Of a DNA stretch of 31,553 nucleotides, positions 10,684-31,277 are shown piece by piece. This DNA is from a virus: IMG/VR virus record IMGVR_UViG_3300003690_000039, positions 1,087 to 32,639 of that record; one strand, given 5' to 3'. A program made the translations under genes and the position numbers. Every line of letters starts with the position of its first letter. Position 1 is the stretch's first letter. Under the pieces are notes generated by a model that was not told where the DNA came from, did not search any database, and saw nothing but the letters and a program-made list of their open reading frames with translations.

Positions 10684-10848
10684 ATGGAAGACTTGTTCCA
10701 CCTTGTAGCGTCGGTCGTGCTCGCGGAGTTCGGCTACTACACGTGGTTGCTCATTCAGAGGGAGCGGTCATACTTCAAAGAAGTGGAGTACGATGGCGCG
10801 ACGTTAATGGAAACCGTGCGACAGGAGTGGGACCATGGTGATGGGTAG
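10684..10848 (+). CDS. Small single-pass membrane protein (54 aa)
   Basis: This 54-residue protein has a hydrophobic helix at about 4-24 (LFHLVASVVLAEFGYYTWLL) followed by a charged, acidic C-terminal half. One membrane pass with the charged tail in the cytoplasm or periplasm is plausible. No ribosome site is visible before ATG 10684, and the gene lies directly after the capsid terminator hairpin, so expression may be low. It overlaps the next gene by 14 bases. A holin-like or virion-associated role cannot be judged from sequence; lysis genes lie 20 kb downstream, which speaks against the main holin. Confidence 0.5.
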   Translation: MEDLFHLVASVVLAEFGYYTWLLIQRERSYFKEVEYDGATLMETVRQEWDHGDG

Positions 10849-11359
10849 GCGCCCCACGGCAGACACACTGAGACGCCAGTTGGCCATGTCGAAGATGGGC
10901 GCCATCATGGGCGATCGTGGGCCGCGTGTTGAAACAAAGCGCCAGCCCGTACCACCCCCAGTTGGCCCCGTTACTCTCGAGGCGCCCAAACCATCCACTG
11001 CTGCAGTGACAGGGCAACTCGTGAGCAACATCGGCGCCACCGCCGTGGGCATCGCTGTTGCTGCAGGCATGAACCCGGTGCTCGGGATAATCCTCGGCCT
11101 CGCGGCGTCTCAGGTGGGCACCGGGGTCGCGGGCGCAATCGCTGCACCTGAGCGAGCCGAGGCCGCCGATATGCAGGTTCGGAACAGGCGGCGCTTGGCA
11201 GAGGCGGCTCTCGAGCGGCAGAGGTATGGGCGCGACCTGCAGCAGGCGCAACCCGAACTGGTGGCTGGCCCAGGTATGCGCGAGCCGATGATGCCGCAAC
11301 CGGGTGAAGAGATAGCGCCAGGCGGCGTAGACAAACTCAAAAGCTTACTGCTGGCATAG
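10835..11359 (+). CDS. Protein with Gly/Ala-rich membrane segment (174 aa)
   Basis: This 174-residue protein has a basic N-terminus, a Pro-rich linker (about 36-53), a long Gly/Ala/Val hydrophobic region (about 62-104) that could form two glycine-zipper-like membrane helices, and an Arg/Gln/Glu-rich helical tail. No family is recognised. ATG 10835 has AGGAG 7 bases upstream; ATG 10841 is an alternative. It lies between capsid and portal genes, where a virion protein is expected, so a minor head protein or one that enters the membrane at ejection is a reasonable guess. The glycine-zipper pattern occurs in membrane-inserting phage proteins, but this is inference only. Confidence 0.6.
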   Translation: MVMGRRPTADTLRRQLAMSKMGAIMGDRGPRVETKRQPVPPPVGPVTLEAPKPSTAAVTGQLVSNIGATAVGIAVAAGMNPVLGIILGLAASQVGTGVAGAIAAPERAEAADMQVRNRRRLAEAALERQRYGRDLQQAQPELVAGPGMREPMMPQPGEEIAPGGVDKLKSLLLA

Positions 11360-11361
11360 AC

Positions 11362-13338
11362 ATGGCAAAGTTCCCCACCGACATGCACTCGCACATCCTG
11401 CGCTCGAGGAGCGAGAAGACGCGCCACGAGCGTGAATGGTCTGCCGCCATGCGGATGCTATCTGGTGACCAGTGGCTCTACTGGAGCCGTCAGGTCAAAG
11501 ACTACAACGCGATCAAGCGCAACCCCGGCGAGGTGCGCGTCACCGTCAACCAGATGATGAATATCGAGCGCAATATCATCGCCAGGCTAACGATGAACGC
11601 GCCCACCCCGGTGGTCATCCCGGCGAGCGATCATGTGGACGACATCACCAAGGCCACCGCCTCCGAGATGGCGCTGCGCTACTTCTGGCTCAGCGACAAG
11701 CAGAACCGTGTATGGGCTGCCGCAATCAGGTGGATATGTCAGACAGGCAACGCGGTACTGCACACATTCTACGAGCCCGGCGTTGAGGTCAAAGAGCAGC
11801 TCGACCTGTTGCCCGGGGACTACCCGTCAGAAGATGGGGAGAAGGAGGACGAGGTCATCGGCTCGAAGAAGACGAATGGCCGAGTGCGCTGTCAGGTGGT
11901 CAGCCCGTTCGATGTCTTCTTCGAGCCGGGTGTGCATAGTCCAGACGATGCCCGGTGGACCGCCATACGAACCTACACCACCAAGGGCGAGCTCAAGGAC
12001 ACCTACCCGGACAAGGCGAAGGAGATAGACGAACTCCCCGACGACACCGAGTACAAACTGCTCGAGTACCAGCAGTACAAGCCGCAGAACCGCATCGAGG
12101 TCTACGAGGTCTACTGGCGTGACGGCCGGCACGCCATCATGGTCGGGGACACCTACTTGCAAAAAGAGGTGAGCTCCGACGTGCGCGACGTCTTCCCCGT
12201 TCGCATGATGCGTTACCACATCATCGAGGGAGACCTGTGGGGGCAGGGGCCGATGGTGCAGATCGCAGACCTGCAGCAGCTCTACAACCGCACGCGCACG
12301 CAGATCCATGCGAATGTCAGGCTCATGGGAAATCCGCCGTGGCTGATCCCCAGGACCGCCGATGTCCGCAAGGGCGCGATGATGAACAAGCCCGGCGCGG
12401 TGATCAGGTTCACCCCAGGTGGAGGCAAGCCAGAGCCGGCCAACCCGCAGCAGATGCCGTCTCATGTGCTCAGAGAGCCCTCGGTGCTCAGGGAGGAGAT
12501 GAGCGACGTGGCTGGCGCTCACGGCATCACCCTGGGGCGCAGAGAGCCCGGTGTGAAGTCTGGCGTACACGCGCGCACGCTGACGCAGCAGGATTCTACG
12601 CAGTTGCTTATGACGCAGAACGAGATCGTCTACGCGGTCGAGGACACCATGAAGACGGTGCTGCTGCTCATGCGTCGGCACTACAACGAGTCGCGGATGA
12701 TCAAGATGCTCGATGCCTCTGGCACGCCAGCGTGGAAGGCCATCTCGAGCATGGACATCGTTGATAACCCTGAGATCCATATCAACGCCGACATGCTCTT
12801 CCAGATCGACGCTGCGGCCAGAGAGGTCAAGGCGCTCGAATACGTGCAACTGGGGCTCATGGACCCGGCAGAGGCGCGGGAGATGATCTCCTTCCGCACC
12901 TACAACCAGCAGGTCGCGCAGAAGTTCCTGGCACTCAGTCACGCCAAGGAGATGCTACAGGCCGTCATCATGGGCAACAACATCCAGATCTTACCCACCG
13001 ACGACCTGGATGCCTTCCTGCGTGTCTTCAACGAGTTCACGCAATCGCCTGAATACTACGAGCTCGCGGATGAGCGGCAGGACTACATCCGTCAGATCAT
13101 TGTCGACGCTGCGTTCGTCAACGAGGACGACCAGATCCACGCGGAGCAGAGCGCGAAGACGACCGTGCATCCGAGGGTAAAGAAGGAGACGCCGCAACTG
13201 CAGTCTGTCGCGATGCCCGCGCCTCCACAGGGGCCGATTGGCGACGACCCGTTTTCCGACGTGGCGTTCCCGGCAGAGGGGCAGAACGTGCCAGGCGTGT
13301 CTAGCCCGCCCATGACGCTGCCGGGGCCAGGGCGATGA
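11362..13338 (+). CDS. Portal protein (P22-type)
   Basis: This 658-residue protein is predicted to form the dodecameric ring through which DNA enters and leaves the head. The N-terminal region has the helical start and QMMNIERNIIARL (about 57-69) typical of large podophage portals. SPFDVFFEPGV (about 181-191), GDLWGQGPMVQIADLQQLYN (about 289-308) and RTRTQIHANVRLMGNPPWLI follow, which match the wing and stem-helix region. The C-terminal 60 residues are Pro-rich and disordered. Length is close to P22-type portals. The start ATG 11362 is two bases after the preceding stop and has a weak ribosome site. The stop overlaps the connector start by four bases (ATGA). Confidence 0.85.
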   Translation: MAKFPTDMHSHILRSRSEKTRHEREWSAAMRMLSGDQWLYWSRQVKDYNAIKRNPGEVRVTVNQMMNIERNIIARLTMNAPTPVVIPASDHVDDITKATASEMALRYFWLSDKQNRVWAAAIRWICQTGNAVLHTFYEPGVEVKEQLDLLPGDYPSEDGEKEDEVIGSKKTNGRVRCQVVSPFDVFFEPGVHSPDDARWTAIRTYTTKGELKDTYPDKAKEIDELPDDTEYKLLEYQQYKPQNRIEVYEVYWRDGRHAIMVGDTYLQKEVSSDVRDVFPVRMMRYHIIEGDLWGQGPMVQIADLQQLYNRTRTQIHANVRLMGNPPWLIPRTADVRKGAMMNKPGAVIRFTPGGGKPEPANPQQMPSHVLREPSVLREEMSDVAGAHGITLGRREPGVKSGVHARTLTQQDSTQLLMTQNEIVYAVEDTMKTVLLLMRRHYNESRMIKMLDASGTPAWKAISSMDIVDNPEIHINADMLFQIDAAAREVKALEYVQLGLMDPAEAREMISFRTYNQQVAQKFLALSHAKEMLQAVIMGNNIQILPTDDLDAFLRVFNEFTQSPEYYELADERQDYIRQIIVDAAFVNEDDQIHAEQSAKTTVHPRVKKETPQLQSVAMPAPPQGPIGDDPFSDVAFPAEGQNVPGVSSPPMTLPGPGR

Positions 13339-14000
13339 CGGCCGACGACGTTGCTGCGCTCTTCCGGCGCTACATGGACGAGCCAGACCAGACGTTTGTC
13401 GATGACGCACAGGTGGTGACGTGGCTCTCGCTAGCCTATGACGACTTCAGGTCCGTTGTTATCGACATGGCGCCATACGTCTACGCACAGGAGCACGTGG
13501 TTACTCTTGCGAGCGCGCGTACCCTCGACCTGGCCGGCGTATTGTTAGGCTCCGCTGCGCCAGCCGCGACCAGGCTGTACCAACTCGTCGACATCTACAG
13601 GGTGGCGAGCGCGACGGACACCGACAACGTGGTGAGCAGGCTCGTGCCATCGCTCAACCTGAAGTCAGCCTATGACGGGCGTGCGGACTATGTGCTCAAG
13701 GGCGCCGTGGTGAGTTTCTCAGATGAGTACACGGGCGTGCTGCGGGTCGACTATGTTCCTGAGCAGAACATAAACTGGACCACTGGTATCGTGCCTGGCA
13801 GCGGCGAGTACATCGACGATCTGAACAGGTTCCACGATATCATCGCGCTCACCGCGTATCTGCAATACGCTATCGTGGACTCGGCCGAGAACCAGCAGCT
13901 GCTGGCGCTCTTCAGTCGTCGCCAGCGGCAGCTCAAGGAGTATCTAGAGAACCGCTCAGGTGGCATCGTGGAGATGGTGGTCGACCTGGAGTACATGTGA
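13335..14000 (+). CDS. Head-tail connector (adaptor) protein, putative
   Basis: This 221-residue protein directly follows and overlaps the portal gene (ATGA). The N-terminal helices (VAALFRRYM, VVTWLSLAYDDFRSVV), a central beta-rich part and a C-terminal helical bundle (FHDIIALTAYLQYAIVDSAE to the RRQRQLKEYLE helix) resemble the helical adaptor proteins that attach to the portal, such as P22 gp4-like and T7 gp11-like proteins. There is no membrane segment or signal peptide. One base separates its stop from the tail hub gene, so the portal, connector and hub order matches the physical order in a short tail. Family assignment is by architecture and context. Confidence 0.62.
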   Translation: MTADDVAALFRRYMDEPDQTFVDDAQVVTWLSLAYDDFRSVVIDMAPYVYAQEHVVTLASARTLDLAGVLLGSAAPAATRLYQLVDIYRVASATDTDNVVSRLVPSLNLKSAYDGRADYVLKGAVVSFSDEYTGVLRVDYVPEQNINWTTGIVPGSGEYIDDLNRFHDIIALTAYLQYAIVDSAENQQLLALFSRRQRQLKEYLENRSGGIVEMVVDLEYM

Positions 14001-14001
14001 A

Positions 14002-17000
14002 ATGGCAGTCAAGTATGAAGAGATCGACATCCTTGGCGAGGGCATTGAGTACACAGAGCCAACCAAGGGCAACTTCGTACTCAATATGCTGCGCCGCCAG
14101 GGCGCCTGGGAAGTACGCCAGGGGTTCGGCCAGGTAGCCGAGTTCGACACGCTCATGCCGTTCAACCTCGGCGGATACACCGCAGGGGACACGACAGAGT
14201 GGGGCTACAAGAAACATCTCGGCAGCCACATCATCAAGACCGACTTCGGGCACACCCAGATCGTCAGCATCTTCAGGGCCACCATCTATACCGACGAGGC
14301 CGGGGAGGTGACGACCCCGCCCACGCCAGTCGCTGCGCCCACGTACGGAGCGCAGATTGTCGACATCTTCCTTGTCAACATCTACGACGCCACCACCAGG
14401 GAGCGGTGGGAAGAGCCCATCTACGGGCATACGTCCGAGAACGGCATCGCTGACACAGACATCGAAGCCAGGGCTGGCAACTATGAGTCGAACCTGCAGC
14501 AAGACATGCAGTCGTGGGTCGGCGCCCAGGGCGACGACCCATTCTTCTTTGCCGAGATAGGGGACACCGTTTACTTCGGGTCGCGCTCCGTTCCCATGTA
14601 TGCCTACTCCCCCGCCACATTCCGTGGGAACAGGTATCGTCAGGTCGCCACCTTCCGTGACGGCACGCATGGTGATGGCGGCGCAGGCGGCGCGACAGCT
14701 CGGGCCGAGTGGAACAGGCCTTACTCCGAGTCGTCCCTGGTATGGCGCGTGCGCCCGTCGAAGGGGCAGTACCCAGAGACGTTTAACTACCGCACAGACT
14801 CCTCTCTGCCGCAGCCAGAGGCCATGATCGCCTTCGACGGTGCCCTCGTCATCGCCAACGAGCGGGTGCTCTACTTCTCCAACATCTTCGCGCCCACAGT
14901 ATTCATCGACCAGAACATCGTGGTGGTGCCCACAGAGAAAGAGATCACGGCGCTGGGGCGCTCTGGGCAGATCATTTACATCTTCACCGAGTCAGAAACG
15001 TGGGCCTACTCGCCTGGCAGCAGCGACCTGTTGGGCGAGGGGATGGCGCCTGTGCGTATCTCAGACTCCATCGGATGCGTCTCACAGAACGGCACCGCGA
15101 ACTTTGGTGAGGCGCTCATCTGGGTGAGCCTCTATGGTGTGCATGTGGCCTCTGGCGGCTTCGATATTAAGACGATAAGTCGGGCGATATCACCGCTCTT
15201 CACCGACTTCATCACCGACCCATGCACCACCTTCTTTACCGCTACCACCGCAGACACTGGCTCAAGCGCCATATACCCGGCCCGCAACAGCGTGGTGACG
15301 TTCGACAAGAACATGCTCAACGTCACCTACTGCGACCATCTGAGGGCGCTTCTTGTGACGCTGCCTGGGCAGCGTGCAACGCTGTGCTACACCGAAGACC
15401 AGTGGTCGCTCTGGACGTTTGAGTCCAACACAGTAGAGGTGTCGACACCCTATGGGAAAGTTCCCAGCGTAGAGCAGAACATAATGAGTCCATGGCTGCT
15501 GTCCATGGACGAGAACCTCTACTGCGTTGGCTCTGTTGGGGTGGAGTCGTACTTCGACAACGCGACAACGAAGGGCCTCGTATGGGGCGACACAACGAAA
15601 GCGAGCTCGTTTTATGTGCTCGAGTACGGACGCGGGGGTGCGCTCGACCGCAGCGTTGACGACGAGGACTACCGGCGTGTATCGGCCAAGTATCGCATCG
15701 ACTGGACCAACACTACGGGCGGCATCGGGTCGGTGACAGCCAGAAGCGTCATCATATTCGACGAATGGGTTCGCGTTGACCACGGGTACAAGTTTTGGGG
15801 CACCCCATCGTTTGGGGTCACCATCCCTGCTGGAGAGGCTGCGCCTGCGGCCCCAGAGGAGACGTACCTGATCCCGGTGAAGATCGTGCCGGCGCACGCG
15901 GACTACGATCTGATCAATGGCGCCGACCGAGGCGTCGAGCAGATCCTGATCAAGTTCTTCTTCGACAACACCCACTGGCAGCCCATCTTCATGGATGACA
16001 GCAGCAGCACGACCCTGGATCTGGTCGTTCCCCCAGAGCGCATGGCGTCCATCTCCTCCTGGGTGACCAGGACGTGCAAGGACATCGGCGCCCCCGGCAA
16101 CCCGCTCAGCCGCGACGGCAACTACATCGAGCTCGAGTGGAACGGTACAGCGGGCGGTGTCTGGCCGGGCATCGGGGACCATCAGCCCGTTGCGGCAGCC
16201 AGCGGCGGCATGAACATCGCACCCTATCGCGAGAACATCATCTGCTACATCCCGATGAAGACGCGGAGCAACATCTCGTTCCCAGCAGGCGTGTCAACGA
16301 TGGGCCTTCGCATCGCCGGCCTGTCTGGCAACGGCTGGGCCGAGGTCTTCAACAACCAGGCTGTACCAGCGAGCCACGACTTTGGCGCCTACATCTACCA
16401 ACAGTGGGCTCGGTTCCCAAGGCACCGCGAGGATGTGCAGGGCACCTCTGGCACCGACCCAATCGCGCAGCCTGTGGATTGGGCGTACATGGGGCCAGAC
16501 GTCGCTCTCAACTCAGACACCAGGATTAAGCTGCGCGGGTTGGCTGTGACGCTGCTGTCTCACGGCCAGGGCACCGATACGGTGAACTCGTGGACACAGG
16601 GGATCTTCAACACCCTGTTCGCCGCAGACCTGAAGACTTGGATGGCGCAGGTGGTCGACTACATCGGCGGCACGGCGATATTCCGGCGCCCCGTGTCGGT
16701 GAAGACGAACCTCTACCCCACCCCGAGGACAGAGCAGACAATCCGAGACCGCATCCCAGGCGCATCCCCCGGTCAGCGCGCCGAGTTCAGTGCTGGGGTC
16801 GAGTGGGCCAGTTCGTCGGTCACGTCGTATGAGACGGATACATACGTCGTTGGCGATGAGCAGGTGGATACCATCGTGACATCGGACTCGGTGAAGGGCA
16901 CATCTGTCTCGGCCATGATCTTCGGCTTCATGCGCAACCCGGCGGAAAGGCTCAAGATACAAAGCGTTAAGGCGATGTTCCGCGCCGTGGGTGCGAACCG

Positions 17001-17019
17001 CAGGAGGAAGGGGCGTTGA
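14002..17019 (+). CDS. Tail hub/nozzle-like protein (1005 aa)
   Basis: This 1005-residue protein follows the connector. Its first half carries repeating beta-blade patterns like those of short-tail nozzle proteins (T7 gp12-like, P22 gp10-like). An example is the stretch from AMIAFDGALVIANERVLYF through VVVPTEKEITALGRSGQIIY to SDSIGCVSQNGTANFGEALI (residues about 275-380). The second half (about 560-1005) has Gly-rich beta segments without a recognised domain and ends in a very basic RRRKGR tail. It is larger than the usual 600-800 residues. ATG 14002 is chosen because it lies one base after the connector stop with GGAG upstream; an earlier in-frame start at 13960 would only add connector-overlapping sequence. 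Context favours tail hub. Confidence 0.68.
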   Translation: MAVKYEEIDILGEGIEYTEPTKGNFVLNMLRRQGAWEVRQGFGQVAEFDTLMPFNLGGYTAGDTTEWGYKKHLGSHIIKTDFGHTQIVSIFRATIYTDEAGEVTTPPTPVAAPTYGAQIVDIFLVNIYDATTRERWEEPIYGHTSENGIADTDIEARAGNYESNLQQDMQSWVGAQGDDPFFFAEIGDTVYFGSRSVPMYAYSPATFRGNRYRQVATFRDGTHGDGGAGGATARAEWNRPYSESSLVWRVRPSKGQYPETFNYRTDSSLPQPEAMIAFDGALVIANERVLYFSNIFAPTVFIDQNIVVVPTEKEITALGRSGQIIYIFTESETWAYSPGSSDLLGEGMAPVRISDSIGCVSQNGTANFGEALIWVSLYGVHVASGGFDIKTISRAISPLFTDFITDPCTTFFTATTADTGSSAIYPARNSVVTFDKNMLNVTYCDHLRALLVTLPGQRATLCYTEDQWSLWTFESNTVEVSTPYGKVPSVEQNIMSPWLLSMDENLYCVGSVGVESYFDNATTKGLVWGDTTKASSFYVLEYGRGGALDRSVDDEDYRRVSAKYRIDWTNTTGGIGSVTARSVIIFDEWVRVDHGYKFWGTPSFGVTIPAGEAAPAAPEETYLIPVKIVPAHADYDLINGADRGVEQILIKFFFDNTHWQPIFMDDSSSTTLDLVVPPERMASISSWVTRTCKDIGAPGNPLSRDGNYIELEWNGTAGGVWPGIGDHQPVAAASGGMNIAPYRENIICYIPMKTRSNISFPAGVSTMGLRIAGLSGNGWAEVFNNQAVPASHDFGAYIYQQWARFPRHREDVQGTSGTDPIAQPVDWAYMGPDVALNSDTRIKLRGLAVTLLSHGQGTDTVNSWTQGIFNTLFAADLKTWMAQVVDYIGGTAIFRRPVSVKTNLYPTPRTEQTIRDRIPGASPGQRAEFSAGVEWASSSVTSYETDTYVVGDEQVDTIVTSDSVKGTSVSAMIFGFMRNPAERLKIQSVKAMFRAVGANRRRKGR

Positions 17020-20387: not shown

Positions 20388-21602
20388 ATGGGAACAGAGA
20401 CAAAAGTAGCGGCCCAAGATGTACAAGCGCAGACCGGGCAGCAGGCCCAGGGGCAACTGTACGGCGCCACCAAGGAGACCATCGAGAAGTCGGCACAAGC
20501 CGGCTACGATGTCGCAACGAAGGCCGGCGCCGTTCCGCAGGCGGTCAAGGACGCCGCCGCTGTACAAAAGGCCGCTGCGCAAGAGGCGAAGTTGGGGTAT
20601 GGGACGGCCTTCGAGAGCGCCAAGGGAGCCACCCAGGCCGCCTTCGCACAAGCACACGGGGCCATTGGGCAAAAGCACCGCAGCGCCCTTGTCGCCGCCC
20701 GTCAGGCGCTGGCAGAGGCTGCGACACGAGGCCTGCAGAGGGGGCGTACCACGGCGGGCAACCTTGGGGCCGCAGGCACACTCGGCAAGCAGGCCGCGAC
20801 GACCCAGAGCCAGATGGCGAGCCAGCAGGCCGCCGAAGAGGGGCAGCTCGGACTGGCGCAGGCTCAAACGATGTCCGGTTACGACATAGCGGCTGCAGAG
20901 AAGGCCGCCGCCACGGGACAGGCCATCGCTGGCTACGATGCCGCCGGCATTAAGGAGGCCGCTGCAGCCGAACTTGGGAGCGCAGAGGCCTTCCAGAACG
21001 CGGTGCTGGGAGAAGCGGAGACCGAGGGCACCCTTCACCAGATAACCCAGGACGTGCTCGACAACGCCCAGACGCAACTCGAGCAGACCCTTACTGAGAT
21101 CGCGGCAGCCGTTCAGGGTGGCGACTACCAGGACGGCATCGTGATCGCCGCAGGAACCATGGACGCATACAGCGTGCCGATGGACGCCGTGCAAAAGGTG
21201 CAGTTCATCAGCATCTTCAATCAGTCCATGCTCGGGCATCCAGATTCCGGCCCGAATACCGGATTATGGACGGCTACTCAGGCCTACGCACTGGCCGAGG
21301 CCCTCGGTGCCGGTGAGGCGCTCAGGCAGATGAGCAGGGTCAGCCAGTGGTTGACCATGTTTGCCGACGCCTCTGGCACGCCAATCAACCTGACCCCAAA
21401 CACCTTCGGGATGATCGTCAACAAGATGATCAGCGAGGGTAAGACCATCGACGAGCTCCCTGGGCTCATGGCCGTATACAACGAAGACGGGACGCCTGGC
21501 GGCATTTATTGGGAAGGTGAGGCCCCAGAGGGCGCGGTGCCGATGACTCAATCCGCCGCGTGGGCGGAAGCGCCAGCGGCGCCGAATGGGTCGGGGCAGT
21601 AG
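20388..21602 (+). CDS. Ala-rich internal virion (ejection) protein, putative
   Basis: This 404-residue protein is very rich in Ala, Gln and Gly over its first 230 residues, with long helical segments. The last third is mixed and ends in a Pro/Ala tail. It is the first of three large consecutive genes whose rising sizes and order match the ejection proteins of short-tailed phages (T7 gp14-16, P22 gp7/20/16). Ala-rich helical proteins of this kind are stored inside the head and form a conduit across the envelope. No lytic transglycosylase motif is seen. The start ATG 20388 follows the previous stop by two bases and has no clear ribosome site. Confidence 0.6.
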   Translation: MGTETKVAAQDVQAQTGQQAQGQLYGATKETIEKSAQAGYDVATKAGAVPQAVKDAAAVQKAAAQEAKLGYGTAFESAKGATQAAFAQAHGAIGQKHRSALVAARQALAEAATRGLQRGRTTAGNLGAAGTLGKQAATTQSQMASQQAAEEGQLGLAQAQTMSGYDIAAAEKAAATGQAIAGYDAAGIKEAAAAELGSAEAFQNAVLGEAETEGTLHQITQDVLDNAQTQLEQTLTEIAAAVQGGDYQDGIVIAAGTMDAYSVPMDAVQKVQFISIFNQSMLGHPDSGPNTGLWTATQAYALAEALGAGEALRQMSRVSQWLTMFADASGTPINLTPNTFGMIVNKMISEGKTIDELPGLMAVYNEDGTPGGIYWEGEAPEGAVPMTQSAAWAEAPAAPNGSGQ

Positions 21603-21604
21603 GC

Positions 21605-23644
21605 ATGGCTGTCATAAGAAGGCCGGCGATGATCGGGCAACTCTTCAAGGGTCGCCAGCGCGCACCCTACTCCGGCCGCGCAGCCTCCATCCGGCCCAGC
21701 GAAACAGGCGAGGAGACAGAGGCGCAGCGCAACGCCAGAGAGCAGCAGGACCGTCAGTTCAAGGCCGCCCAGGAGCAGCGCCTCGCCATGGACATCGCCA
21801 ACACGGTGCTGAAAGCCGGCCAGTTCGGCCTCGGCGTCTACCAGGCATCCAAAGACCCCGCCGCAATCAGGACGCAGCAAGCACAAGCAGCGATGCTGGG
21901 CGAGTTCGAGACGGGTGCCAGAGAGGGCGTCTCGCAAGACCCCCTCGCGCCACTGGCGCCCGTCGCGACAGACCCCAGCGCGGCAGCAGCCTCGGGCACC
22001 CCAGCAGGACCAACCGGCGTGCCCGAGGGGATGCAGCCCATCTCCATGAGCCAGGGAGACCTGGAGCAACTGCTGGCGAACATGCCAGCCGCACAGGCAA
22101 ACTATGGGATGCTCCCTGACGGCTCGGCGCCACCCAAGCGCAAGGCACTCATACAGCAACTCGTCACGCTGCCCAACGTGAGAGATGCGGCACACGCGGA
22201 CGAACTCATCTCGTCTGCGTTGGGGCAGGGAGCAATGATTGCAGAGAGGCACGAGGGGCTGTTCTCGTCGGGCGCCTTCAAGCGCGTGCCGGGAGATGCG
22301 ACCGGGTTCTGGGATCTGCTCGGTGGAGAGGCCACCAAGCCAGGATGGAAGCCGCAGCACCGCGCCGCTCAGGCGCTCAGGCCGGGCGGCGGCGGGCGCG
22401 TAGGGGGTGACCCGGCACCAACCGCCGACTACCTCGGCAAGCTCGCTGAAGCTCGAGGGAAGTATGGCGACGCCGTCTTCCCCAAGGTGGTCGAGCGCGT
22501 TATGGCAGACCCTGCTGCAGGCGACGCCATCATTGCAGAGATAAGCGCCGACCCGGCAGCGGCTGGCGCGGAGTGGGCTGCCATCGCAGAGGCTGCGAAG
22601 AAGGGCGACCGTGGCCCCGCCATCGACGCGGTGATCAAGTACCTCACCATGACTCCAGAGGAGTTGCGTGGCGTGAGCAAGCCGCAGGGGCTCGGCCGGG
22701 CCGAGGCGTTCTTCGGCCCCGGCGGCGAGGTGCGCATCCCACTCGACACCAGCATCGTCGACCTGCAGGGGGCAATCGCGTCACTCAGGGAGTCTGAACA
22801 GCACGGTCTGGCGAACAAGCTGCTCAGGGAAGAGGCCTGGGGGCGTACCACCGACTTCGCGTCGGTGCCCGGTGCCGCGAAGAGTGCCCGGCCGAAGGAC
22901 GCCATCGTGCAGTTCCTCAATGCGGGCAAGGCCGAGCTCGACATGGACCCGAGGAAGCGCGCCATGCAGTTCTACGAGCTCGCCAAGGGTGAGGGCGCGC
23001 TGCGTGCCAAGGAGACAACGGCAAAGGCGGCGCTGGCCAGGGCCACGCGCTCCGTGTCGCGCAGCGAACACGTAGGCCACAAGGGCCGCACCACCGGCCT
23101 CGGAGAGGACGACTGGAAGACGAGTTGGCGTGATCGCCCCGAGTACCAGCGCATACTCGAGATGGTCGGAGAGGGGGAGGCCGAGAAGGTGCTCCACCGG
23201 CAGTGGCGCAACCAGAAGCAGAACTACCTCTACAAGCGTTACGTCGAACTCGGGAAGGTGGAAAAAGAAGAGGGCGCCTCCGCAAAGGCAGCAACGGAGG
23301 CCGAGGCTGCGGCGGGCAAGCAGTCCACCAAGGACCGGCGTACGTTGCTCAGGGACAAGAGGTCGTTCGAAAAGGACGTGCGTGACCGGAAGACTGACCT
23401 CAAGGAGGCCTTGAGCAGATGGGGCGTCTCACCAGGCGGCAAGGTGTCGGTAGAGGGGTGGGTCAAGAAGAAGCTTATAGCGGAGAATGTGTCCACCGCA
23501 GGTAGGAAGGCGCGTAGGAAGGAGCTTCTTAGGGAGGCCAGGGCGGGCGTGCTGGCAGCCAACACCGAGATCGCCAACGCCTTGCAGGCGGTGACGGATG
23601 CGGAAGCGTCTAAGGCTGCGTTCCTCGAGACCTTCGAGAAGTAG
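21605..23644 (+). CDS. Internal virion (ejection) protein, putative (679 aa)
   Basis: This 679-residue protein has an Ala/Gln/Glu-rich N-terminal half with Pro-rich linkers (about 110-150) and a strongly charged, helical C-terminal third that includes probable coiled coils near 545-600 and 640-679. No enzyme motif, signal peptide or clear membrane helix is evident. It lies between the 404- and 2228-residue genes with two to three bases of separation on each side, so the three should be co-expressed and probably act together. By analogy to T7 gp15 and P22 gp20, it would be part of the head core or DNA-ejection channel; this is inference from position and composition. Confidence 0.58.
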   Translation: MAVIRRPAMIGQLFKGRQRAPYSGRAASIRPSETGEETEAQRNAREQQDRQFKAAQEQRLAMDIANTVLKAGQFGLGVYQASKDPAAIRTQQAQAAMLGEFETGAREGVSQDPLAPLAPVATDPSAAAASGTPAGPTGVPEGMQPISMSQGDLEQLLANMPAAQANYGMLPDGSAPPKRKALIQQLVTLPNVRDAAHADELISSALGQGAMIAERHEGLFSSGAFKRVPGDATGFWDLLGGEATKPGWKPQHRAAQALRPGGGGRVGGDPAPTADYLGKLAEARGKYGDAVFPKVVERVMADPAAGDAIIAEISADPAAAGAEWAAIAEAAKKGDRGPAIDAVIKYLTMTPEELRGVSKPQGLGRAEAFFGPGGEVRIPLDTSIVDLQGAIASLRESEQHGLANKLLREEAWGRTTDFASVPGAAKSARPKDAIVQFLNAGKAELDMDPRKRAMQFYELAKGEGALRAKETTAKAALARATRSVSRSEHVGHKGRTTGLGEDDWKTSWRDRPEYQRILEMVGEGEAEKVLHRQWRNQKQNYLYKRYVELGKVEKEEGASAKAATEAEAAAGKQSTKDRRTLLRDKRSFEKDVRDRKTDLKEALSRWGVSPGGKVSVEGWVKKKLIAENVSTAGRKARRKELLREARAGVLAANTEIANALQAVTDAEASKAAFLETFEK

Positions 23645-23647
23645 CCG

Positions 23648-26600
23648 ATGCCCATGACCTACATGCAGCTCGCGAAAGAGCTAGCGGGCCAGGGCTACAC
23701 CAAGGAGGAGTTCGCTGCGGTGCTCAAGGAGCTGACCGGCGAGGACTACTACGCCGCCGACCCCAGCACCTACATCGAGGGTGACTTCACCACCGGCATG
23801 GAGGAGGGCACCACCCCGTTGCAATCGGGTCCGCCCATGGAAGAGGCTGGCCAGCGCAGCGTTACCGCAGAGCGCATCGAGCCGCGCCTTCAGTCGGTGA
23901 ATCCGACCTTCGACCTTCCCGCCGTGATGCAGATGCAGCAGGAGGAGGAGCGTCGCCGGGTCGAGGAGTGGCGAGCGCGGCAGATCGCGGCAGAAGAGCC
24001 GTCGCCTACGGAGTTCACATATCCGAGCGCGAACGTGGATCCCGCCACTGGAGAGCCGCGTTCGGTGATGACCCGCAGAGAGATCGCAACGTATCCGACT
24101 CACATGCAGCCATACCTGCTCGAGAGGTTCGGCTACCAGACGGTGGACCCTGGCGTGCGCCCCATGTCTACGCAGGAGCTCGCAGCGGCATCTGGGCGCC
24201 CCCCAGAGACGCTGGACTACCCAGAAGAGTACGCGCACACGCTGGCGGCCACAGAGGCGCTAGGGCAAGACCCTGAGAGCGTCTACAGGGAAGAGACTGC
24301 GCCCGAGCCAGAGCCCGAGCCAATGACGCCTGCGATGCCCATGCGCTACAACATCCCCCATCCCGCCACGTTCGAGGGCCCAGCCAAGCCCTCGCTGGAG
24401 GGGGAGTTGCCCTCTACGCTGGCTGAATACATGGAGGGCAAGCGCCTCATCGCTGGAGAGATAAGGGACGAGCCAGAGCCGATGCCTTCAGCCGTGGCTG
24501 ACTACATGGAGGGCAAGCGCCTGGTGGCTGGCCGGCTTGAAGACATCCCGTCAGCCGACTACCGGGGCGAAGACTACGTGACTCGCCTGGATGAGCCCGC
24601 CCCCGCCAGCGTTATGGCACCTATCGCTGAGATGAAGCGCAAGGGCGAGATCCGAGAGGAGTTCTACGAGAAGGCAGAGCGGCCCCCTGTTGGCCCCAGG
24701 GATCTGCTCAAGGCAGCGTTGGACCCGTTCGACTTCGCCGGGATGGTGATGGACAACAAGTCCCTCGAGGTCTGGAGCGAGGCCATGTGGGAGCGGTTCA
24801 TCCAGCTCTTCGAGGTGCCCGTTGAGAAGGCCATTGAGGGCGACCTGAGGCTTCAGCGGCTGCTCCGCCCAGAGGAGTGGGACAGCGACGACGACTTCGG
24901 GGTGTTCCTGCCGGGAATGTACGGCGACAACAAGCTGACCGCCGGGGATAGGCGCAACCTTGAGCGCCTATGGGACATACAAGACGCCGAGGTGATGGAG
25001 GCGATCGACGAGACCATGGTCAGCACCGAGGCCAAGGCCGCGCTATATCCAATCCTCACAAACGCCCGCAAGAGCGTGGGCAACCTGGCCAATGGACTCT
25101 GGGACATGGGCCTCTCGATCGTCGGCGGCAACATCCCCGACGCGGTCTGGCGCGAGATGGACTCCTCAGAGCGCAAGAGGATGCTCGAGGAGCAGGCCCA
25201 CGAGGCCATAGACGAGATGTTCGGCAAGGGGATGGCATCGTTCGTCATCACCGTACTGGCCAACCCCGGCGCAGCGGTGGAGGTCTTCCCGGCTGAGATC
25301 TCATTCATCGCCTACCGCCCCATGAAGGCGATGGCCAGGCCAGCCGGCAGGAAGTTCGTCGAGTCGATGGACCTCTTTCTGGAGTGGCAGGGCGCCAAGG
25401 GACCCAGAAGGGCAGCGGTGGCGACCGGCATCAAGCGGGCAGCGTCAGCCACCCAGCGCGCATTTGCAGACCCTGCCGCCCACTACACAAAGGGCGGGGA
25501 GGAGTTCCTTCAGAAGGCGGGGCCAGAGGCCATACTTGCCGAAGAGGCCATCACAGAGGGCTTCGATGTGGTCGCCAGATCGGTGGCGGAGGAGACGGCA
25601 GCGGGTCGCCCACCCGAGGTTATCGAGACGCCGCTCAGGCCCAGGTACGAGGGCGGCGGCCCCGTGAGGCCAGTGGCCGATGTCCCGAGCCCAAAGCATC
25701 CCACCACGTTTACGGCCAGGGCGACGGCTGGCGAGCCGCTGGTGCGTAAGGCAGACATCGCAGCCCAGTTGAAAGAGTGGCGCGGACACGAGGCGTGGCT
25801 TCTGGAGCAGCCCGAAGGGACAACCCTTACGTCGTCAGGATATAGGGAGTTCGTAGCGCCCGGTGAGGTGCCGATGGCAAGCCGGCCCATGAAGGGGTTT
25901 GCGCCAGAAGCCAGGATTGGCCTTACGCTGGAGCAGGTGCGAGCGGAGATATGGAAGCTCGAAGCGTTGCTTGAGGAGAGGGCGCCTTTGACCGTTCTTC
26001 CAGAGGCCGAGGTGCTACCGCTCGGTGCCGCTGAGAGGACAACGATACCGGAGCCCGTGCGCGTAGCAGAGCGGAAGAGGCTCGCAGACCCCACAGCCGA
26101 AGAGGCGCTCAGTAGCGCCGAGGGGATGATCGCGGAGATTGAGGGCGTCCAGGTGTGGGAGGGGCCGATAGCCGCGTTGCGAGAGGTCAAGGAGCAGGTA
26201 AGGCTTGCCGACCTGGAGCTCGCGGAGTTGCGCCAGTCCACCACGGAGCGGTTCACAAACCGCATGATCGACGAACTCGAGACGGTGCGCGGCGCCCTGG
26301 TGGAGTACGCCGACAACATCCTCCAGGACATTGCCAGCGAGGGTGACGCCGCCCTTATGAAAGGGGCGAAAGAGGTGATGGGGTCCGAGGCGTCCCCCCA
26401 GGTGCCCTCATCGGCTTGGGCGTGGGATAGGTACGAAGGGCGCACGGCCGACGTGGCCGCAGCCAAAGCACGCACCCCGTCCAAGACAGATCCGGTTGAG
26501 GCGGTGAGGGCGGCCATTGAGGAGCTCCAGGCGCGCAGGCCCGAACCCACCCCCGAAGCCCCGACCCCACGCGACACGATCTGGGCTCATCAACGCCGCG

Positions 26601-29600
26601 CCGCCGCACTCGCGGACGGACCAACCGGGTCTGGCGGCACGGTGTCCTTCCACGTGAGCGCCAAGGGCGGCATGAGGGCGGCAGCGGGCAAGAGGAAGGT
26701 CTCGACCGAGGCTCTCGAGGCCGGTGTGCTCGACTCAGTGGCCGGGCTGTCGGAGACGAGTTGGCCGCACACACCCAAGCGGCAGCTCGGCTACGAGTTC
26801 GAGGTTCACACGGTGCCCATCTCTTCGCAGACCGGCGGTTCGCTGGGCAAGTCGAGGAAGGTGGCGACGGCGAAGAGAGACCCGAAGCCGACCATCCTAC
26901 CGGACGAGGCGATGGGCATGATCCGAGACCTCACTGAGATCTTCGGTGAGGAGGGCGCCATCCTTCGCGGCATCGTCACAGAGGAGGGCCTGGCGCAGCA
27001 GGTTATCGCCGCCGTAGACATCGAGCTCGTCAACCAGTTCTCGAGCCCCAAGGGCCGGGCGACAGTGGTCGAGACGGTTGTAGAGACCGCGAACCAGTCC
27101 TTCTGGGGCGGCAAGATGCCGCGCAAGGTCAAGAAGGATATGGCGAAGACGGTTGCCGACACGCTCGAGGACGCAGCGGGCAGGCATCGCGGCGAGGGGG
27201 GCACATCCTCTGTCTTCAACCCGCTGTTTGAGCTACAGGGACCAGACGGCAGGATCGTCACCGTCAACGGACTGCGCGCACTGGCAAAGAAGCAGAAGGC
27301 AGACCCGGTCTTCCGGGCGAAGATCCAGAAGGAGGCGCTCGACTACGTGAGCCGGCGCATTGGTGCCCAGGCAAAGGCCAGGGGAGTGCAGGACGGCGTG
27401 ATGAGCGCCATCGTGAGAGACAGCGAGATCGTCGGCAAGACCGCGTACGCCATGTCGAGCGCGGCTGACCGGGCCACGATGCGCGCCCAGGCGTTGAAGG
27501 GGTCGAAGGAGGTACAGAAGCACACGTCTCTCAAGAACGAGCTGAACAACGCGAAGGCGAAGACGGGGAAAGAGCGGGACACCGCAAAGATCGACAGCCT
27601 GACCAAGAAGCTCGACGAGATGGAGGGGACAACGACCACGCCGGGGGTCGTCGACACCTACCTGAATGGGCTCATCGACAAGTATAGGCGCACTGGTGAC
27701 ATGCCATCGACGTGGCTCTTCGGTGACGCCCTCGAGCACGCATGGAACCGATTGCAAACAAGTCGCCCCGGCGCTCCACTGTCGGGGCTCTGGATGCTCA
27801 GAGAGCACCTCAGACCGCGCAACGCAACCAAGGTGTTCGGGTCTGGATTGACCGCCGACCAGGCACTCATGTCCTCATACTTCGGGTTCACAAAGCCATC
27901 GGCACAGGCGCAGGCCGCCTTCCGTCGCGCCGCCGCAAAGCCCTTTACCGACATCACCACCGCCATGCCTGACAGGTGGATGAGCAAGCCGCTCTACAAG
28001 GTCTCCGAGCTCATGGCGCGGGACGCTGGTGTGCTCCCTGCGATGGGGTGGCTCAAGGGGATCGAGAAGTACTGGCGCGCAGTCAAGCTCGGCAAGGTGG
28101 CAGGCAACCCCGGCTCGCATGTGATGGCCCTGGGGGCCAACACGATCGTGCAGATGCAGAGGCGTGGGGATATGTTCATCGCCGCCAAGGCCGCAGGCAG
28201 CCTGGTTGACTACATGCGCTTCAAGGCGGGGCTGAAGACGCTGGTCGATCCACAGATCTACCGCAGCCTGGAGCACAGTGGGCGCATATCTGGCTCGATG
28301 GTCAAGGGTGAGATCGACGCCAACATGCGCCGCTGGCTCGAAGACCCAGAGTTCGCCACCAGGGACTGGGCTGGCGACTTTATGACCGCTGGCATCGGGC
28401 GTCGGGTCTATGACTGGTGGGACACCATGTTCAAGATCGAGGACGGGGTAAACCAGTGGCACCGGCGCATGAAGGAGTGGGATAGCCTCCCGGCTGGCAC
28501 CGCAAAGAACCCCATCGAGTACCACTTCCCGGTCGGCAGGTCGCTCGAGATAAAGGCGCAGAAGATCAACGGCAAGATGGTGGTCGACGGCCGCGTGCTG
28601 ACCGACGCGCAGTTCCGGCACATGATGGGCCGTGCAGCCATGGAGCCGGGCGCGAGGTGGGCGGTCGACTTCAAGGTCGTGCCGCTGCTGGCGATATTCA
28701 AGCGCAACTTCCCGCTGCTCGACATGATGCTGAGTGACTTCTCCACCTGGCGCATCGTGACCGACACCTTCCCCTTCTTCAAAGATGGCATCTGGGGTGA
28801 GATTATGTTGGGCGCCACCCCTCGCGGCTACGTGAGCCACCTGCCTCTGCGGCTCAAGCGTGCGGGTGAGATGGCCACCACCAACATGTTGAGGACCATG
28901 ACGACCGCTGCCCTTTCGCAGCGCGTGAGCGGCGAAGACCATCAGATGATGCGCGCCATGCTCAATAGATATGGGGCTGCGAGCCCCGTCTACTCCATCT
29001 CCGCGACCGCCGACCCGCGTGTCTTCAGCGTTATGAACGGCACCTCATTCTCCGTCCACGAGAGCGTGGAGCGGTGGCTCCGTACCGCCGAGGCGCTTGC
29101 GTATACGGCGCCCTCGAGGGGGCACTACGGGGAAACCATCCAGGAGTGGCTCGGCTTTGTGAAGCCAGACGCCACCATAGAGCTCCCAGGCGCCAAGAGG
29201 GGAGATGAGCCAGACACTGAGATGATGCTGCTGCTGTCGGATGATGAGATGGCCAAGCTGTCTCCAGCGAAGCGGCGCCACATTGAGGCATCGAAGGCCT
29301 ACTGGATAGACAACGCGAAGACCGGCGGCATGGGCAGAAAGGCGTCCATGGGGCTCTTCTACATGGAAGGCAACATCTACATAAACATGTTCCTCGACTT
29401 CCTCTTTGAGACCCGCAAGGAAGCGGAGATGGGCCCGAAGCTGGCCGTCGCTGATACCCTCATCCGTTCGTTGGCGCCCAGGTGGGCTGCGGCTGCCATG
29501 TACTACGGCCTCGAGACCAAGCGAGAGGGGGACATCGAGAAGTACCGCGATGCGATGGAGGTGCTCCAGAAGGAGGAGGACCGCATTGAGGCCATCCCAG

Positions 29601-30334
29601 AGGACGAGCGCACGCAGAAGGAGAGGGACAGCCTCAAGAGGATCCTCGACCCAGCGAGAAGGAAGGATCTCCAGACGAAGTACCTGTCCTTCGCCAAGGA
29701 TGTGGAGGCGCTCACCAGAGAGGAGTACAGAGCCGAGGCCATCTTGGGTGCGCTCGATCCGTCCCTGGCCGAAGGGCCGCTGCGGCGGGCAGCACAACGC
29801 ACCCTGCACTCGCCCGTCTTTGTGGCGGCGTGGCACCGCTTCAACACCGACCCCAAGAGCAAGAGGAAGGTGAAGGAGCGGGAGGGCATGAAGGCCGTGG
29901 GGTTCCAGTTCAAGGGCACCGCTATCAATGGGCTCATCGACCGCGCAACCCGGCAGTTCGGGCGCGGAGCGGCAGACGCCGAGGCGATCCATCGCACGGC
30001 CACCCGCGCTGGCGACAGGCCGGTCTTTGAGGGTAGTACGGCCCACGAGTACGCCTATGAGGTGGGCGAGAAGATCAAGTCCCTCACGCAGCTCTACCGT
30101 GAGATCCTGCTCGAAGAGGCAGAGGGGATGCAGGGCCGCTGGGACGAGATGTTCGGCAAGCTCGAGCTCAAGGCGCAACAGAAGGGTCAAGAGGACGCTC
30201 CGTTCGGCCTCGACGCGGCGTCAATCCCCACCGACCCGGCGAGTCCAGACAGAGAGATACCGCTGGAGGGGTGGACCAAAGAGCCCGACATCAGGAAGAG
30301 GTTCGAGAAGCCCGAGCAATACTACCCCTTCTAG
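23648..30334 (+). CDS. Giant internal virion/polyvalent protein (2228 aa)
   Basis: This gene takes up a fifth of the window. Residues 1-330 are acidic and Pro-rich, with two 25-residue-spaced copies of an EYMEGKRLIAG-like unit (from residues 259 and 284). Residues about 500-1330 are helical with Pro/Glu-rich linkers. Residues about 1400-1800 look most conserved: WRAVKLGKVAGNPGSHVMAL near 1475, YDWWDTMFKIEDGVNQW near 1588 and FKRNFPLLDMMLSDFSTW near 1683. These resemble domains of large phage 'polyvalent' ejected proteins, a comparison from memory. No transglycosylase, protease or polymerase motif was found by eye. The T7 equivalent, gp16, is about 1300 residues, so this one is unusually long. 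ATG 23648 is four bases after the previous stop. Confidence 0.65.
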   Translation: MPMTYMQLAKELAGQGYTKEEFAAVLKELTGEDYYAADPSTYIEGDFTTGMEEGTTPLQSGPPMEEAGQRSVTAERIEPRLQSVNPTFDLPAVMQMQQEEERRRVEEWRARQIAAEEPSPTEFTYPSANVDPATGEPRSVMTRREIATYPTHMQPYLLERFGYQTVDPGVRPMSTQELAAASGRPPETLDYPEEYAHTLAATEALGQDPESVYREETAPEPEPEPMTPAMPMRYNIPHPATFEGPAKPSLEGELPSTLAEYMEGKRLIAGEIRDEPEPMPSAVADYMEGKRLVAGRLEDIPSADYRGEDYVTRLDEPAPASVMAPIAEMKRKGEIREEFYEKAERPPVGPRDLLKAALDPFDFAGMVMDNKSLEVWSEAMWERFIQLFEVPVEKAIEGDLRLQRLLRPEEWDSDDDFGVFLPGMYGDNKLTAGDRRNLERLWDIQDAEVMEAIDETMVSTEAKAALYPILTNARKSVGNLANGLWDMGLSIVGGNIPDAVWREMDSSERKRMLEEQAHEAIDEMFGKGMASFVITVLANPGAAVEVFPAEISFIAYRPMKAMARPAGRKFVESMDLFLEWQGAKGPRRAAVATGIKRAASATQRAFADPAAHYTKGGEEFLQKAGPEAILAEEAITEGFDVVARSVAEETAAGRPPEVIETPLRPRYEGGGPVRPVADVPSPKHPTTFTARATAGEPLVRKADIAAQLKEWRGHEAWLLEQPEGTTLTSSGYREFVAPGEVPMASRPMKGFAPEARIGLTLEQVRAEIWKLEALLEERAPLTVLPEAEVLPLGAAERTTIPEPVRVAERKRLADPTAEEALSSAEGMIAEIEGVQVWEGPIAALREVKEQVRLADLELAELRQSTTERFTNRMIDELETVRGALVEYADNILQDIASEGDAALMKGAKEVMGSEASPQVPSSAWAWDRYEGRTADVAAAKARTPSKTDPVEAVRAAIEELQARRPEPTPEAPTPRDTIWAHQRRAAALADGPTGSGGTVSFHVSAKGGMRAAAGKRKVSTEALEAGVLDSVAGLSETSWPHTPKRQLGYEFEVHTVPISSQTGGSLGKSRKVATAKRDPKPTILPDEAMGMIRDLTEIFGEEGAILRGIVTEEGLAQQVIAAVDIELVNQFSSPKGRATVVETVVETANQSFWGGKMPRKVKKDMAKTVADTLEDAAGRHRGEGGTSSVFNPLFELQGPDGRIVTVNGLRALAKKQKADPVFRAKIQKEALDYVSRRIGAQAKARGVQDGVMSAIVRDSEIVGKTAYAMSSAADRATMRAQALKGSKEVQKHTSLKNELNNAKAKTGKERDTAKIDSLTKKLDEMEGTTTTPGVVDTYLNGLIDKYRRTGDMPSTWLFGDALEHAWNRLQTSRPGAPLSGLWMLREHLRPRNATKVFGSGLTADQALMSSYFGFTKPSAQAQAAFRRAAAKPFTDITTAMPDRWMSKPLYKVSELMARDAGVLPAMGWLKGIEKYWRAVKLGKVAGNPGSHVMALGANTIVQMQRRGDMFIAAKAAGSLVDYMRFKAGLKTLVDPQIYRSLEHSGRISGSMVKGEIDANMRRWLEDPEFATRDWAGDFMTAGIGRRVYDWWDTMFKIEDGVNQWHRRMKEWDSLPAGTAKNPIEYHFPVGRSLEIKAQKINGKMVVDGRVLTDAQFRHMMGRAAMEPGARWAVDFKVVPLLAIFKRNFPLLDMMLSDFSTWRIVTDTFPFFKDGIWGEIMLGATPRGYVSHLPLRLKRAGEMATTNMLRTMTTAALSQRVSGEDHQMMRAMLNRYGAASPVYSISATADPRVFSVMNGTSFSVHESVERWLRTAEALAYTAPSRGHYGETIQEWLGFVKPDATIELPGAKRGDEPDTEMMLLLSDDEMAKLSPAKRRHIEASKAYWIDNAKTGGMGRKASMGLFYMEGNIYINMFLDFLFETRKEAEMGPKLAVADTLIRSLAPRWAAAAMYYGLETKREGDIEKYRDAMEVLQKEEDRIEAIPEDERTQKERDSLKRILDPARRKDLQTKYLSFAKDVEALTREEYRAEAILGALDPSLAEGPLRRAAQRTLHSPVFVAAWHRFNTDPKSKRKVKEREGMKAVGFQFKGTAINGLIDRATRQFGRGAADAEAIHRTATRAGDRPVFEGSTAHEYAYEVGEKIKSLTQLYREILLEEAEGMQGRWDEMFGKLELKAQQKGQEDAPFGLDAASIPTDPASPDREIPLEGWTKEPDIRKRFEKPEQYYPF
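24422..24535 (+). repeat. Two-copy 75-bp-spaced repeat inside the giant gene
   Basis: Copies begin at 24422 and 24497 and encode AEYMEGKRLIAGE and ADYMEGKRLVAGR. Twenty bases (TACATGGAGGGCAAGCGCCT) are identical. The offset is exactly 25 codons, and both copies are followed by acidic residues and proline. This looks like an internal duplication of a short binding motif in the disordered N-terminal part of the protein. Confidence 0.8.
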
Positions 30335-30384: not shown

Positions 30385-30711
30385 ATGAGCAGTCCACAAC
30401 AGCCCCTGTACTGGGACACCGTCAGGCAGACCCTCGCAGCCGGCACCGCCTACAAGGTCAACCTGCCCAGCGGGACGATAGACTGGACGGTCGTAAACGC
30501 CAGCGCATCCACGATCGGCATTGCCGGCACGGCGGCCACCATTGCGTCGCCACACCTCGCCGTCGTGAGCTTGGATGCCGCGTCTGGCAAGGGGCAGGAG
30601 TTGTACTTGGCTAACGCCACGGGCGGTGGGCTGACAATCGTGGTCAGTTGGATCCGCCCAGGGCGCCAGCCTACAGCCGACGCTGGCGTGACGACGTTCA
30701 CCGCGCTCTAG
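30385..30711 (+). CDS. Small beta-rich virion-type protein (108 aa)
   Basis: This 108-residue protein is composed mainly of alternating hydrophobic and small residues (for instance IDWTVVNASASTIGIAGTAA and GGGLTIVVSWI), the pattern of a beta-sandwich. It has no signal peptide, Cys or catalytic motif. Small proteins of this type in phages are often decoration proteins or tail tip parts, but the location between the ejection genes and lysis genes fits neither exactly, so no function is given. The start ATG 30385 has AAGGAG 6 bases upstream. The stop TAG overlaps the GTG start of the endolysin by one base. Confidence 0.6.
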   Translation: MSSPQQPLYWDTVRQTLAAGTAYKVNLPSGTIDWTVVNASASTIGIAGTAATIASPHLAVVSLDAASGKGQELYLANATGGGLTIVVSWIRPGRQPTADAGVTTFTAL

Positions 30712-31277
30712 TGGACGGCACCACCCCAGAGGCTCTGGCGAGCTACGCCGAGTCATGGCTTGGGGTCAAAGAGAAGACCAGCAACCGTGGCCCAGAGGTC
30801 GACTTCTTTGTGCGGGTGGCGGGTGGCAGGCCGGGTGCCAGGCCCCCATGGTGTGCGTACTTTGTCACCTTCTGCTGTGACGCGCTGCGACGGATGGGTC
30901 TGGACCTTCACGAGGTCAGGACGGGGCGAGCCGTGAACCACTGGCTCAAGGCTGACGAGTCCAGGCGCATCGCTCGAGACGACATCTGGGGCATCGAGGA
31001 TCCTCGCGGCCTCATCTACGTCCGCACCCGCACATCCAAGCCCGTCAACGACGCCAACAAGGTCCGCCGAGGCATCTCGCGCACCGGGCATGTCGGTCTG
31101 GTTCTGGAGGTAGATAGAGAGGCCGGTACCATCACAGGGATCGCCGGGAACAGTTCTTCAGCAGGCCACTCCGCAGGCGGCGGGGCGGTATGCAATGAGA
31201 CCATCACCAAGGACGGGAGAGCCTACGATCGCATCGTCGGCTTCATCTCCGTCGTCGACATACCGGAGGAGATATGA
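30711..31277 (+). CDS. Endolysin, CHAP-type cysteine peptidase/amidase
   Basis: This 188-residue protein is predicted to cleave peptidoglycan at lysis. It has the CHAP/NlpC-like layout. An N-terminal helix precedes the catalytic cysteine in PPWCAYFVTFC (C48). The catalytic histidine is in TGHVGLVLEVD (H127), and a polar third residue lies in IAGNSSS (N147). There is no signal peptide, so export would need a holin; no clear holin is in the window. No separate cell-wall-binding domain is present, as is usual for endolysins of phages of Gram-negative hosts. The start is GTG 30711, which shares a base with the preceding stop (TAGTG); TTG 30648 in frame is an alternative with no better ribosome site. 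Confidence 0.8.
   Translation: MDGTTPEALASYAESWLGVKEKTSNRGPEVDFFVRVAGGRPGARPPWCAYFVTFCCDALRRMGLDLHEVRTGRAVNHWLKADESRRIARDDIWGIEDPRGLIYVRTRTSKPVNDANKVRRGISRTGHVGLVLEVDREAGTITGIAGNSSSAGHSAGGGAVCNETITKDGRAYDRIVGFISVVDIPEEI

What the first reader, a model, noticed from the sequence alone, without database searches (positions are those of the whole stretch)
23648..30334. A 2228-residue protein in the ejection-protein position without a visible enzyme
It is far larger than T7 gp16 and shows no transglycosylase motif by eye, although ejected proteins usually need a way through peptidoglycan. Motifs at about 1475-1700 resemble polyvalent-protein domains. The long N-terminal half may hold several small unknown effector domains delivered into the host.
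Basis: partly seen in the sequence, partly recalled or inferred. Interest (0 to 1): 0.6.

Follow-up and report, generated by a model that had tools for sequence, protein, structure and literature searches.

The report
Giant cysteine-free phage ejection protein
This is most likely the largest of three proteins that a short-tailed virus of bacteria shoots into its host to make a channel for its DNA; its sequence is unlike any named family, but it is an ordinary kind of protein and no hidden enzyme or toxin was found in it.

Summary
The 2228-aa ORF at 23648-30334 is real. It has relatives in nine other IMG/VR records, is under purifying selection (dN/dS about 0.26 against the closest relative), and matches nothing credible in Pfam, PHROGs, NCBIfam, the PDB or the phage collection. 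It is the last of three genes after adaptor-, nozzle- and fibre-type genes, the layout of T7 14-15-16 and BPP-1 bbp12-11-10. The strongest new evidence is composition: all three proteins lack cysteine (0 of 3311 residues; other virion proteins here 0.67%), as do the relatives' triads. In nine reference podophages ejection proteins carry 10 Cys in 23,185 aa against 220 in 29,934 aa for other virion proteins; SU10, checked afterwards, gave 0 in 2956. 'No visible enzyme' holds but is not anomalous: P22 and Sf6 gp16 lack a hydrolase, and BPP-1 carries it in the neighbouring protein. The size has precedents (Bbp10 2052 aa, N4 gp50 3500 aa). 'Polyvalent domains' and 'several N-terminal effector domains' are not supported: no such family matches, and much of the N-terminal half is indel-rich. 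AlphaFold models were too poor to use. Virion location is inferred, not shown. Verdict: a divergent new member of a known kind.

The parts
23648..30334 (+). 2228-aa giant protein; ejection (internal virion) protein in the gp16 position
   Evidence: 0 Cys
23648..23827 (+). aa 1-60: short N-terminal helical segment conserved in relatives
   Evidence: alignment A1; model helices 5-14 and 19-30 at low confidence
23828..24727 (+). aa 61-360: Pro/Glu-rich, indel-rich stretch (30-88% gaps in distant relatives)
24728..25807 (+). aa 361-720: conserved helical region with the SGGNIPK-FW type motif
25808..26887 (+). aa 721-1080: variable stretch with coiled-coil helices; about 200 aa of it missing in close relative L002
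26888..27427 (+). aa 1081-1260: conserved segment, helices plus a beta hairpin (local pLDDT 70-80)
27938..29617 (+). aa 1431-1990: conserved C-terminal core, peak of identity at 1681-1740 (KRN-P--D---SPFSGW---T--P---GI-GE)
   Evidence: alignments A2, A7
21605..23644 (+). 679-aa Cys-free protein, second ejection protein by position (gp15-like place)
   Evidence: no profile match to T7 gp15
20388..21602 (+). 404-aa Ala-rich Cys-free protein, first ejection protein by position
   Evidence: no profile match to T7 gp14
14002..17019 (+). 1005-aa tail nozzle candidate (T7 gp12 position)
   Evidence: PHROG 511 hit 4.5e-8 on the longer ORF, a family labelled internal virion protein; nozzle assignment is by position and is an inference
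13335..14000 (+). 221-aa adaptor candidate (T7 gp11 position)
   Evidence: size and position only
30711..31277 (+). CHAP-type peptidoglycan hydrolase, probable lysis endolysin; GTG start set by comparison with L002
   Evidence: PF05257 E 1.8e-4, below the curated cut-off; L002 and G001 copies

Best explanation
The protein is the third and largest internal (ejection) protein of a divergent podovirus. It would be packaged in the head with the 404-aa and 679-aa proteins encoded just before it, leave unfolded through portal, adaptor and nozzle, and refold in the envelope as the inner-membrane or cytoplasmic part of the DNA-translocation channel, as T7 gp16 does. The conserved C-terminal core (about aa 1431-1990) and the aa 361-720 region would be the working structural parts, and the indel-rich stretches flexible tethers. 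Shown here: the ORF, its conservation, gene order, complete absence of cysteine, no enzyme family. Inferred: packaging, ejection, refolding and membrane role.
For: Gene order portal - adaptor - nozzle - fibre-type proteins - 404 aa - 679 aa - giant - lysis genes is kept in relatives G001-G005 and parallels T7 11-12-14-15-16 and BPP-1 bbp14-13-12-11-10. The triad has 0 Cys in 3311 aa against 27 in 4035 aa for the window's other virion/packaging proteins (Fisher 9e-8). About 23 Cys codons are expected in the giant gene from its base composition, and the two shifted frames hold 83 and 34. The triads of L065, L068, L069 and L070, both pieces of the G002 giant and its two smaller partners are also Cys-free. 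In nine reference podophages ejection proteins have 10/23,185 Cys against 220/29,934 in other virion/packaging proteins. SU10 gp20-24, absent from particles after genome release (PMC9509320), have 0/2956 against 35/5798; SU10 was taken after the rule was noticed. At 400 aa or more, 19 of 26 ejection proteins (the window's three included) but 4 of 70 others have no Cys, and none of those four exceeds 593 aa. Published rationale for the Cys-free N4-like virion RNA polymerase: passage through tail and oxidising periplasm (PMC3715699, PMC2784036, PMC3915230).
Against: No profile match to T7 gp16, Bbp10, BcepC6B gp17, HMO-2011 gp22 or N4 gp50; the alignment is shallow (Neff 2.8). Structure models were of low confidence (mean pLDDT 43 and 39). 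No clear transmembrane helix (max 19-residue hydropathy 1.54), though T7 gp16 scores no higher (1.44). The L071 fragment has 2 Cys. No virion proteomics exist.
Confidence: 0.78

Rival explanations
1. A polyvalent protein: an injected multidomain carrier of effectors or enzymes (nucleases, proteases, host modifiers) that act after delivery, with channel building only part of its role.
For: BPP-1 Bbp10, 2052 aa in the same gene slot, does carry LPD22 and PBECR1; the protein is 900 aa longer than T7 gp16; lineage-specific segments exist.
Against: No Pfam family, polyvalent-associated models included, gives a credible match in any of 8 members; the LPD38 model yields no candidate; no HExxH metallopeptidase motif; the variable stretches are Pro/Glu-rich or coiled-coil and partly deleted in relatives.
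Confidence: 0.13
2. An external tail or adhesion protein of unusual length rather than an internal protein.
For: Fibre-type genes lie in the same module, just upstream; large variable virion proteins are often adhesins.
Against: The sequence is predicted helical rather than beta-rich; the fibre-type proteins of the window carry Cys whereas the giant does not; it lies in the ejection slot next to two further Cys-free proteins.
Confidence: 0.06
3. A virion RNA polymerase of the N4 type, ejected to transcribe early genes.
For: Giant, Cys-free and probably ejected, like N4 gp50.
Against: No RNAP family match, no hhalign match to gp50, and the only DxxGR-like strings (TAAGR 650, DAAGR about 1175) are not conserved in the distant relatives.
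Confidence: 0.01

Closest known systems
T7 gp16 (internal virion protein D, 1318 aa)
   Same: Last and largest of three ejection genes after adaptor and nozzle; Cys-free
   Different: No N-terminal transglycosylase domain; 900 aa longer; no detectable sequence or profile similarity
BPP-1 Bbp10 (2052 aa) with Bbp11 (SLT) and Bbp12
   Same: Same slot, similar length, triad nearly Cys-free
   Different: Bbp10 carries LPD22 and PBECR1 and Bbp11 an SLT domain; none of these is found in the window's triad; no profile similarity
P22 gp7/gp20/gp16 and Sf6 gp11/gp12/gp13
   Same: Ejection triad in which the gp16-type protein lacks a peptidoglycan-hydrolase domain (PMC8954989); P22 triad Cys-free
   Different: The P22 and Sf6 gp16-type proteins are only 609 and 665 aa (PMC8954989); sequence relation not tested against these
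N4 gp50 virion RNA polymerase (3500 aa)
   Same: Giant, Cys-free, ejected protein
   Different: No RNA polymerase motifs or similarity here

Membership tests
podophage ejection (internal virion) protein, gp16 position | last and largest gene of a cluster of three following adaptor and nozzle genes | tested here: met
   adaptor and nozzle are themselves assigned by position
podophage ejection (internal virion) protein, gp16 position | near-absence of cysteine (criterion derived here from nine phages, checked on SU10) | tested here: met
   0 Cys in 2228 aa and in the relatives' complete copies
podophage ejection (internal virion) protein, gp16 position | presence in the virion and release with the genome | not testable with these tools
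   needs proteomics of a cultivated relative
T7 gp16 sequence family | profile similarity to T7 gp16 | tested here: inconclusive
   no match, but the query profile is shallow (Neff 2.8) and T7 gp16 was a single sequence
T7 gp16 sequence family | N-terminal lytic transglycosylase domain | tested here: not met
   no SLT match in any member of the giant family; the domain is not universal in gp16-like proteins (PMC8954989)
T7 gp16 sequence family | similar fold | tested here: inconclusive
   model pLDDT 43; no significant match
polyvalent proteins (Iyer et al. 2017, PMC5512222) | several recognisable polyvalent-associated or effector domains in one chain | tested here: not met
   no credible Pfam match in 8 members; LPD38 gives no candidate
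N4-like virion RNA polymerase | T7-like RNAP domain and motifs | tested here: not met

The most novel reading that the evidence does not exclude
The giant, or the variable aa 721-1080 stretch within it, carries a delivered activity (peptidoglycan hydrolase or host-directed effector) of a fold not yet in any family library, so that this lineage breaches the wall or takes over the host with an enzyme of undescribed type.
Probability: 0.1. Interest if true: 0.65.

Novelty: new member of a known kind. Interest (0 to 1): 0.35.

Why it matters
It adds a very divergent ejection apparatus, invisible to present family libraries, to the podophage repertoire. The wider use is the cysteine rule: ejection proteins of ten reference podophages are nearly Cys-free, so ejected proteins can be nominated from sequence alone when homology fails.

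Tried and rejected
Pfam, PHROGs, NCBIfam and PDB sequence searches of the giant and its relatives: nothing credible. tblastn in the phage collection: only low-scoring tail-protein matches at E 0.2-0.5. Genome-contig scan: none. LPD38, SLT and CHAP models against the own record: none; the CHAP gene is found only as a protein, at E 1.8e-4. hhalign with T7 gp16, Bbp10, BcepC6B gp17, HMO-2011 gp22 and N4 gp50: none. AlphaFold of aa 1095-2228 and 1-1094: too poor to interpret. Foldseek PDB: no match at E 0.001; a T7 core protein ranks second at E 0.53, which is not evidence. VIA-align: best Z 6.4, within the background for helical bundles. Foldseek BFVD: three large unnamed viral proteins at E 6e-13 to 8e-6, possibly uncharacterised relatives. 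A DsbA-like hit for aa 1-60 (E 0.002) lies outside the CXXC site and is treated as probable chance. The idea that the separate SLT protein of relatives is the missing virion enzyme was set aside: it has an N-terminal hydrophobic segment, several Cys and lies on the opposite strand.

Full report
Observation. The ORF at 23648-30334 is real: 2228 codons from an ATG four bases after the preceding gene's stop, while the other frames of the stretch are closed many times. The window is most of a linear 32.6-kb IMG/VR record. One close relative, L002, is 81-89% identical over aa 296-2228, with dN 0.10 and dS 0.38. More distant ones (19-26% identity over the C-terminal half) occur in G001-G005, L071, L073 and L075, about 1770-2005 aa where complete. 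No relative was found in the genome-contig scan or the phage collection.

Genomic place. Terminase, major capsid protein and portal are recognised. Then come a 221-aa protein in the adaptor position, a 1005-aa protein in the nozzle position, three fibre-type proteins, and the 404-, 679- and 2228-aa proteins, followed by a 108-aa protein, a CHAP hydrolase and a lipoprotein-like ORF. Five relatives keep the order of this module. T7 and BPP-1 have the same arrangement of adaptor, nozzle and three ejection proteins of rising size. Assignments by position are inferences: the 404- and 679-aa proteins show no profile match to T7 gp14 and gp15.

Cysteine. The giant contains no cysteine, although about 23 Cys codons are expected from its position-specific base composition and 39 TGG (Trp) codons are present. 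The 404- and 679-aa proteins contain none either, while the other eight virion/packaging proteins of the window have 0.67% (Fisher 9e-8). Relatives' triads show the same; the one exception seen is the L071 fragment with two Cys. To test whether this marks ejection I counted Cys in the ejection proteins of T7, SP6, P-SSP7, phiKMV, P22, epsilon15, BPP-1, BcepC6B and N4: 10 in 23,185 aa against 220 in 29,934 aa for other virion/packaging proteins, with a Fisher p below 0.001 in every phage. The pattern was noticed first in the window and T7, so the nine phages are a test made after the fact. For several of them (P-SSP7, BcepC6B, BPP-1, epsilon15) the ejection label rests on annotation or synteny and is softer than for T7, P22 and N4. 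SU10, fetched after the rule was fixed and with gp20-24 lost from particles on genome release (PMC9509320), gave 0 in 2956 aa against 35 in 5798. Published papers note the Cys-free N4-like virion RNA polymerase and explain it by passage through the tail and the oxidising periplasm (PMC3715699, PMC2784036, PMC3915230). The signature is not perfectly specific: 4 of 70 other proteins of 400 aa or more are Cys-free, but none of these exceeds 593 aa.

Anatomy. Conservation across distant relatives divides the protein into a short N-terminal helical segment, an indel-rich Pro/Glu-rich stretch (aa 61-360), a conserved region (361-720), a variable coiled-coil stretch (721-1080, partly missing in L002), a conserved segment (1081-1260), a second variable stretch, and the conserved core (1431-1990), which peaks at 1681-1740. 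AlphaFold models had mean pLDDT 42.9 and 38.7, too low for fold assignment, so the limits rest on conservation only.

Enzymes. No peptidoglycan hydrolase is recognised in the giant or the 679-aa protein of any member or in the 404-aa protein of the window. This is not unusual: P22 and Sf6 gp16 lack one (PMC8954989), and BPP-1 and BcepC6B carry SLT in the neighbouring ejection protein. Downstream of the giant, relatives carry either a CHAP protein (window, L002, G001; the start of one can be read in G005) or an M15 peptidase (G002-G004) in the lysis position. G001, G002 and G004 also encode a small SLT protein with an N-terminal hydrophobic segment on the opposite strand. In G002 it lies about 1.3-1.9 kb past the giant's stop, at or beyond the end of this window, so its absence here says nothing.

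Polyvalent reading. Bbp10 shows that a giant in this slot can be polyvalent (LPD22, PBECR1). Here the same library finds nothing credible in eight members, and the LPD38 model gives no candidate. The claim is not supported, though a novel fold cannot be excluded with such shallow alignments.

Conclusion. Best reading: a divergent ejection protein in the gp16 position, Cys-free as ejected podophage proteins generally are, and mostly structural. Packaging, ejection and channel formation are inferred, not shown.

Noticed in passing
10835-11359: 174-aa protein between capsid and portal genes with a Gly/Ala-rich hydrophobic segment; similar proteins (125-182 aa) precede the portal in relatives and are Cys-free except in L070 (3 Cys). 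Candidate membrane-inserting ejection protein.
   Followed up: partly
30711-31277; L066:3897-4280; L068:188-571: The gene in the lysis position after the giant is a CHAP hydrolase in some members and an unrelated M15 peptidase in others: a non-homologous swap at one locus.
   Followed up: partly
L066:5188-5763 (-); L069:2-544 (+); L064:17355-17927 (+): Small Cys-bearing SLT-domain protein with an N-terminal hydrophobic segment, on the strand opposite to the late genes, conserved in three relatives; role unclear.
   Followed up: partly
L071:2-2257: The only family member seen with cysteines: two, nine residues apart (CELDGANVPC), in the C-terminal part of a partial sequence.
   Followed up: no
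23648-23827: The N-terminal 60 aa of the family profile match a helical stretch of Pseudomonas DsbA at E 0.002; probably chance.
   Followed up: partly
25808-26887: Close relative L002 lacks roughly 200 aa of this stretch while the flanks are 80-90% identical: a recent insertion or deletion.
   Followed up: partly
3352-4278: DnaC-like helicase loader (PHROG 50) with 15 Cys in 308 aa, perhaps a zinc-binding N-terminal part.
   Followed up: no
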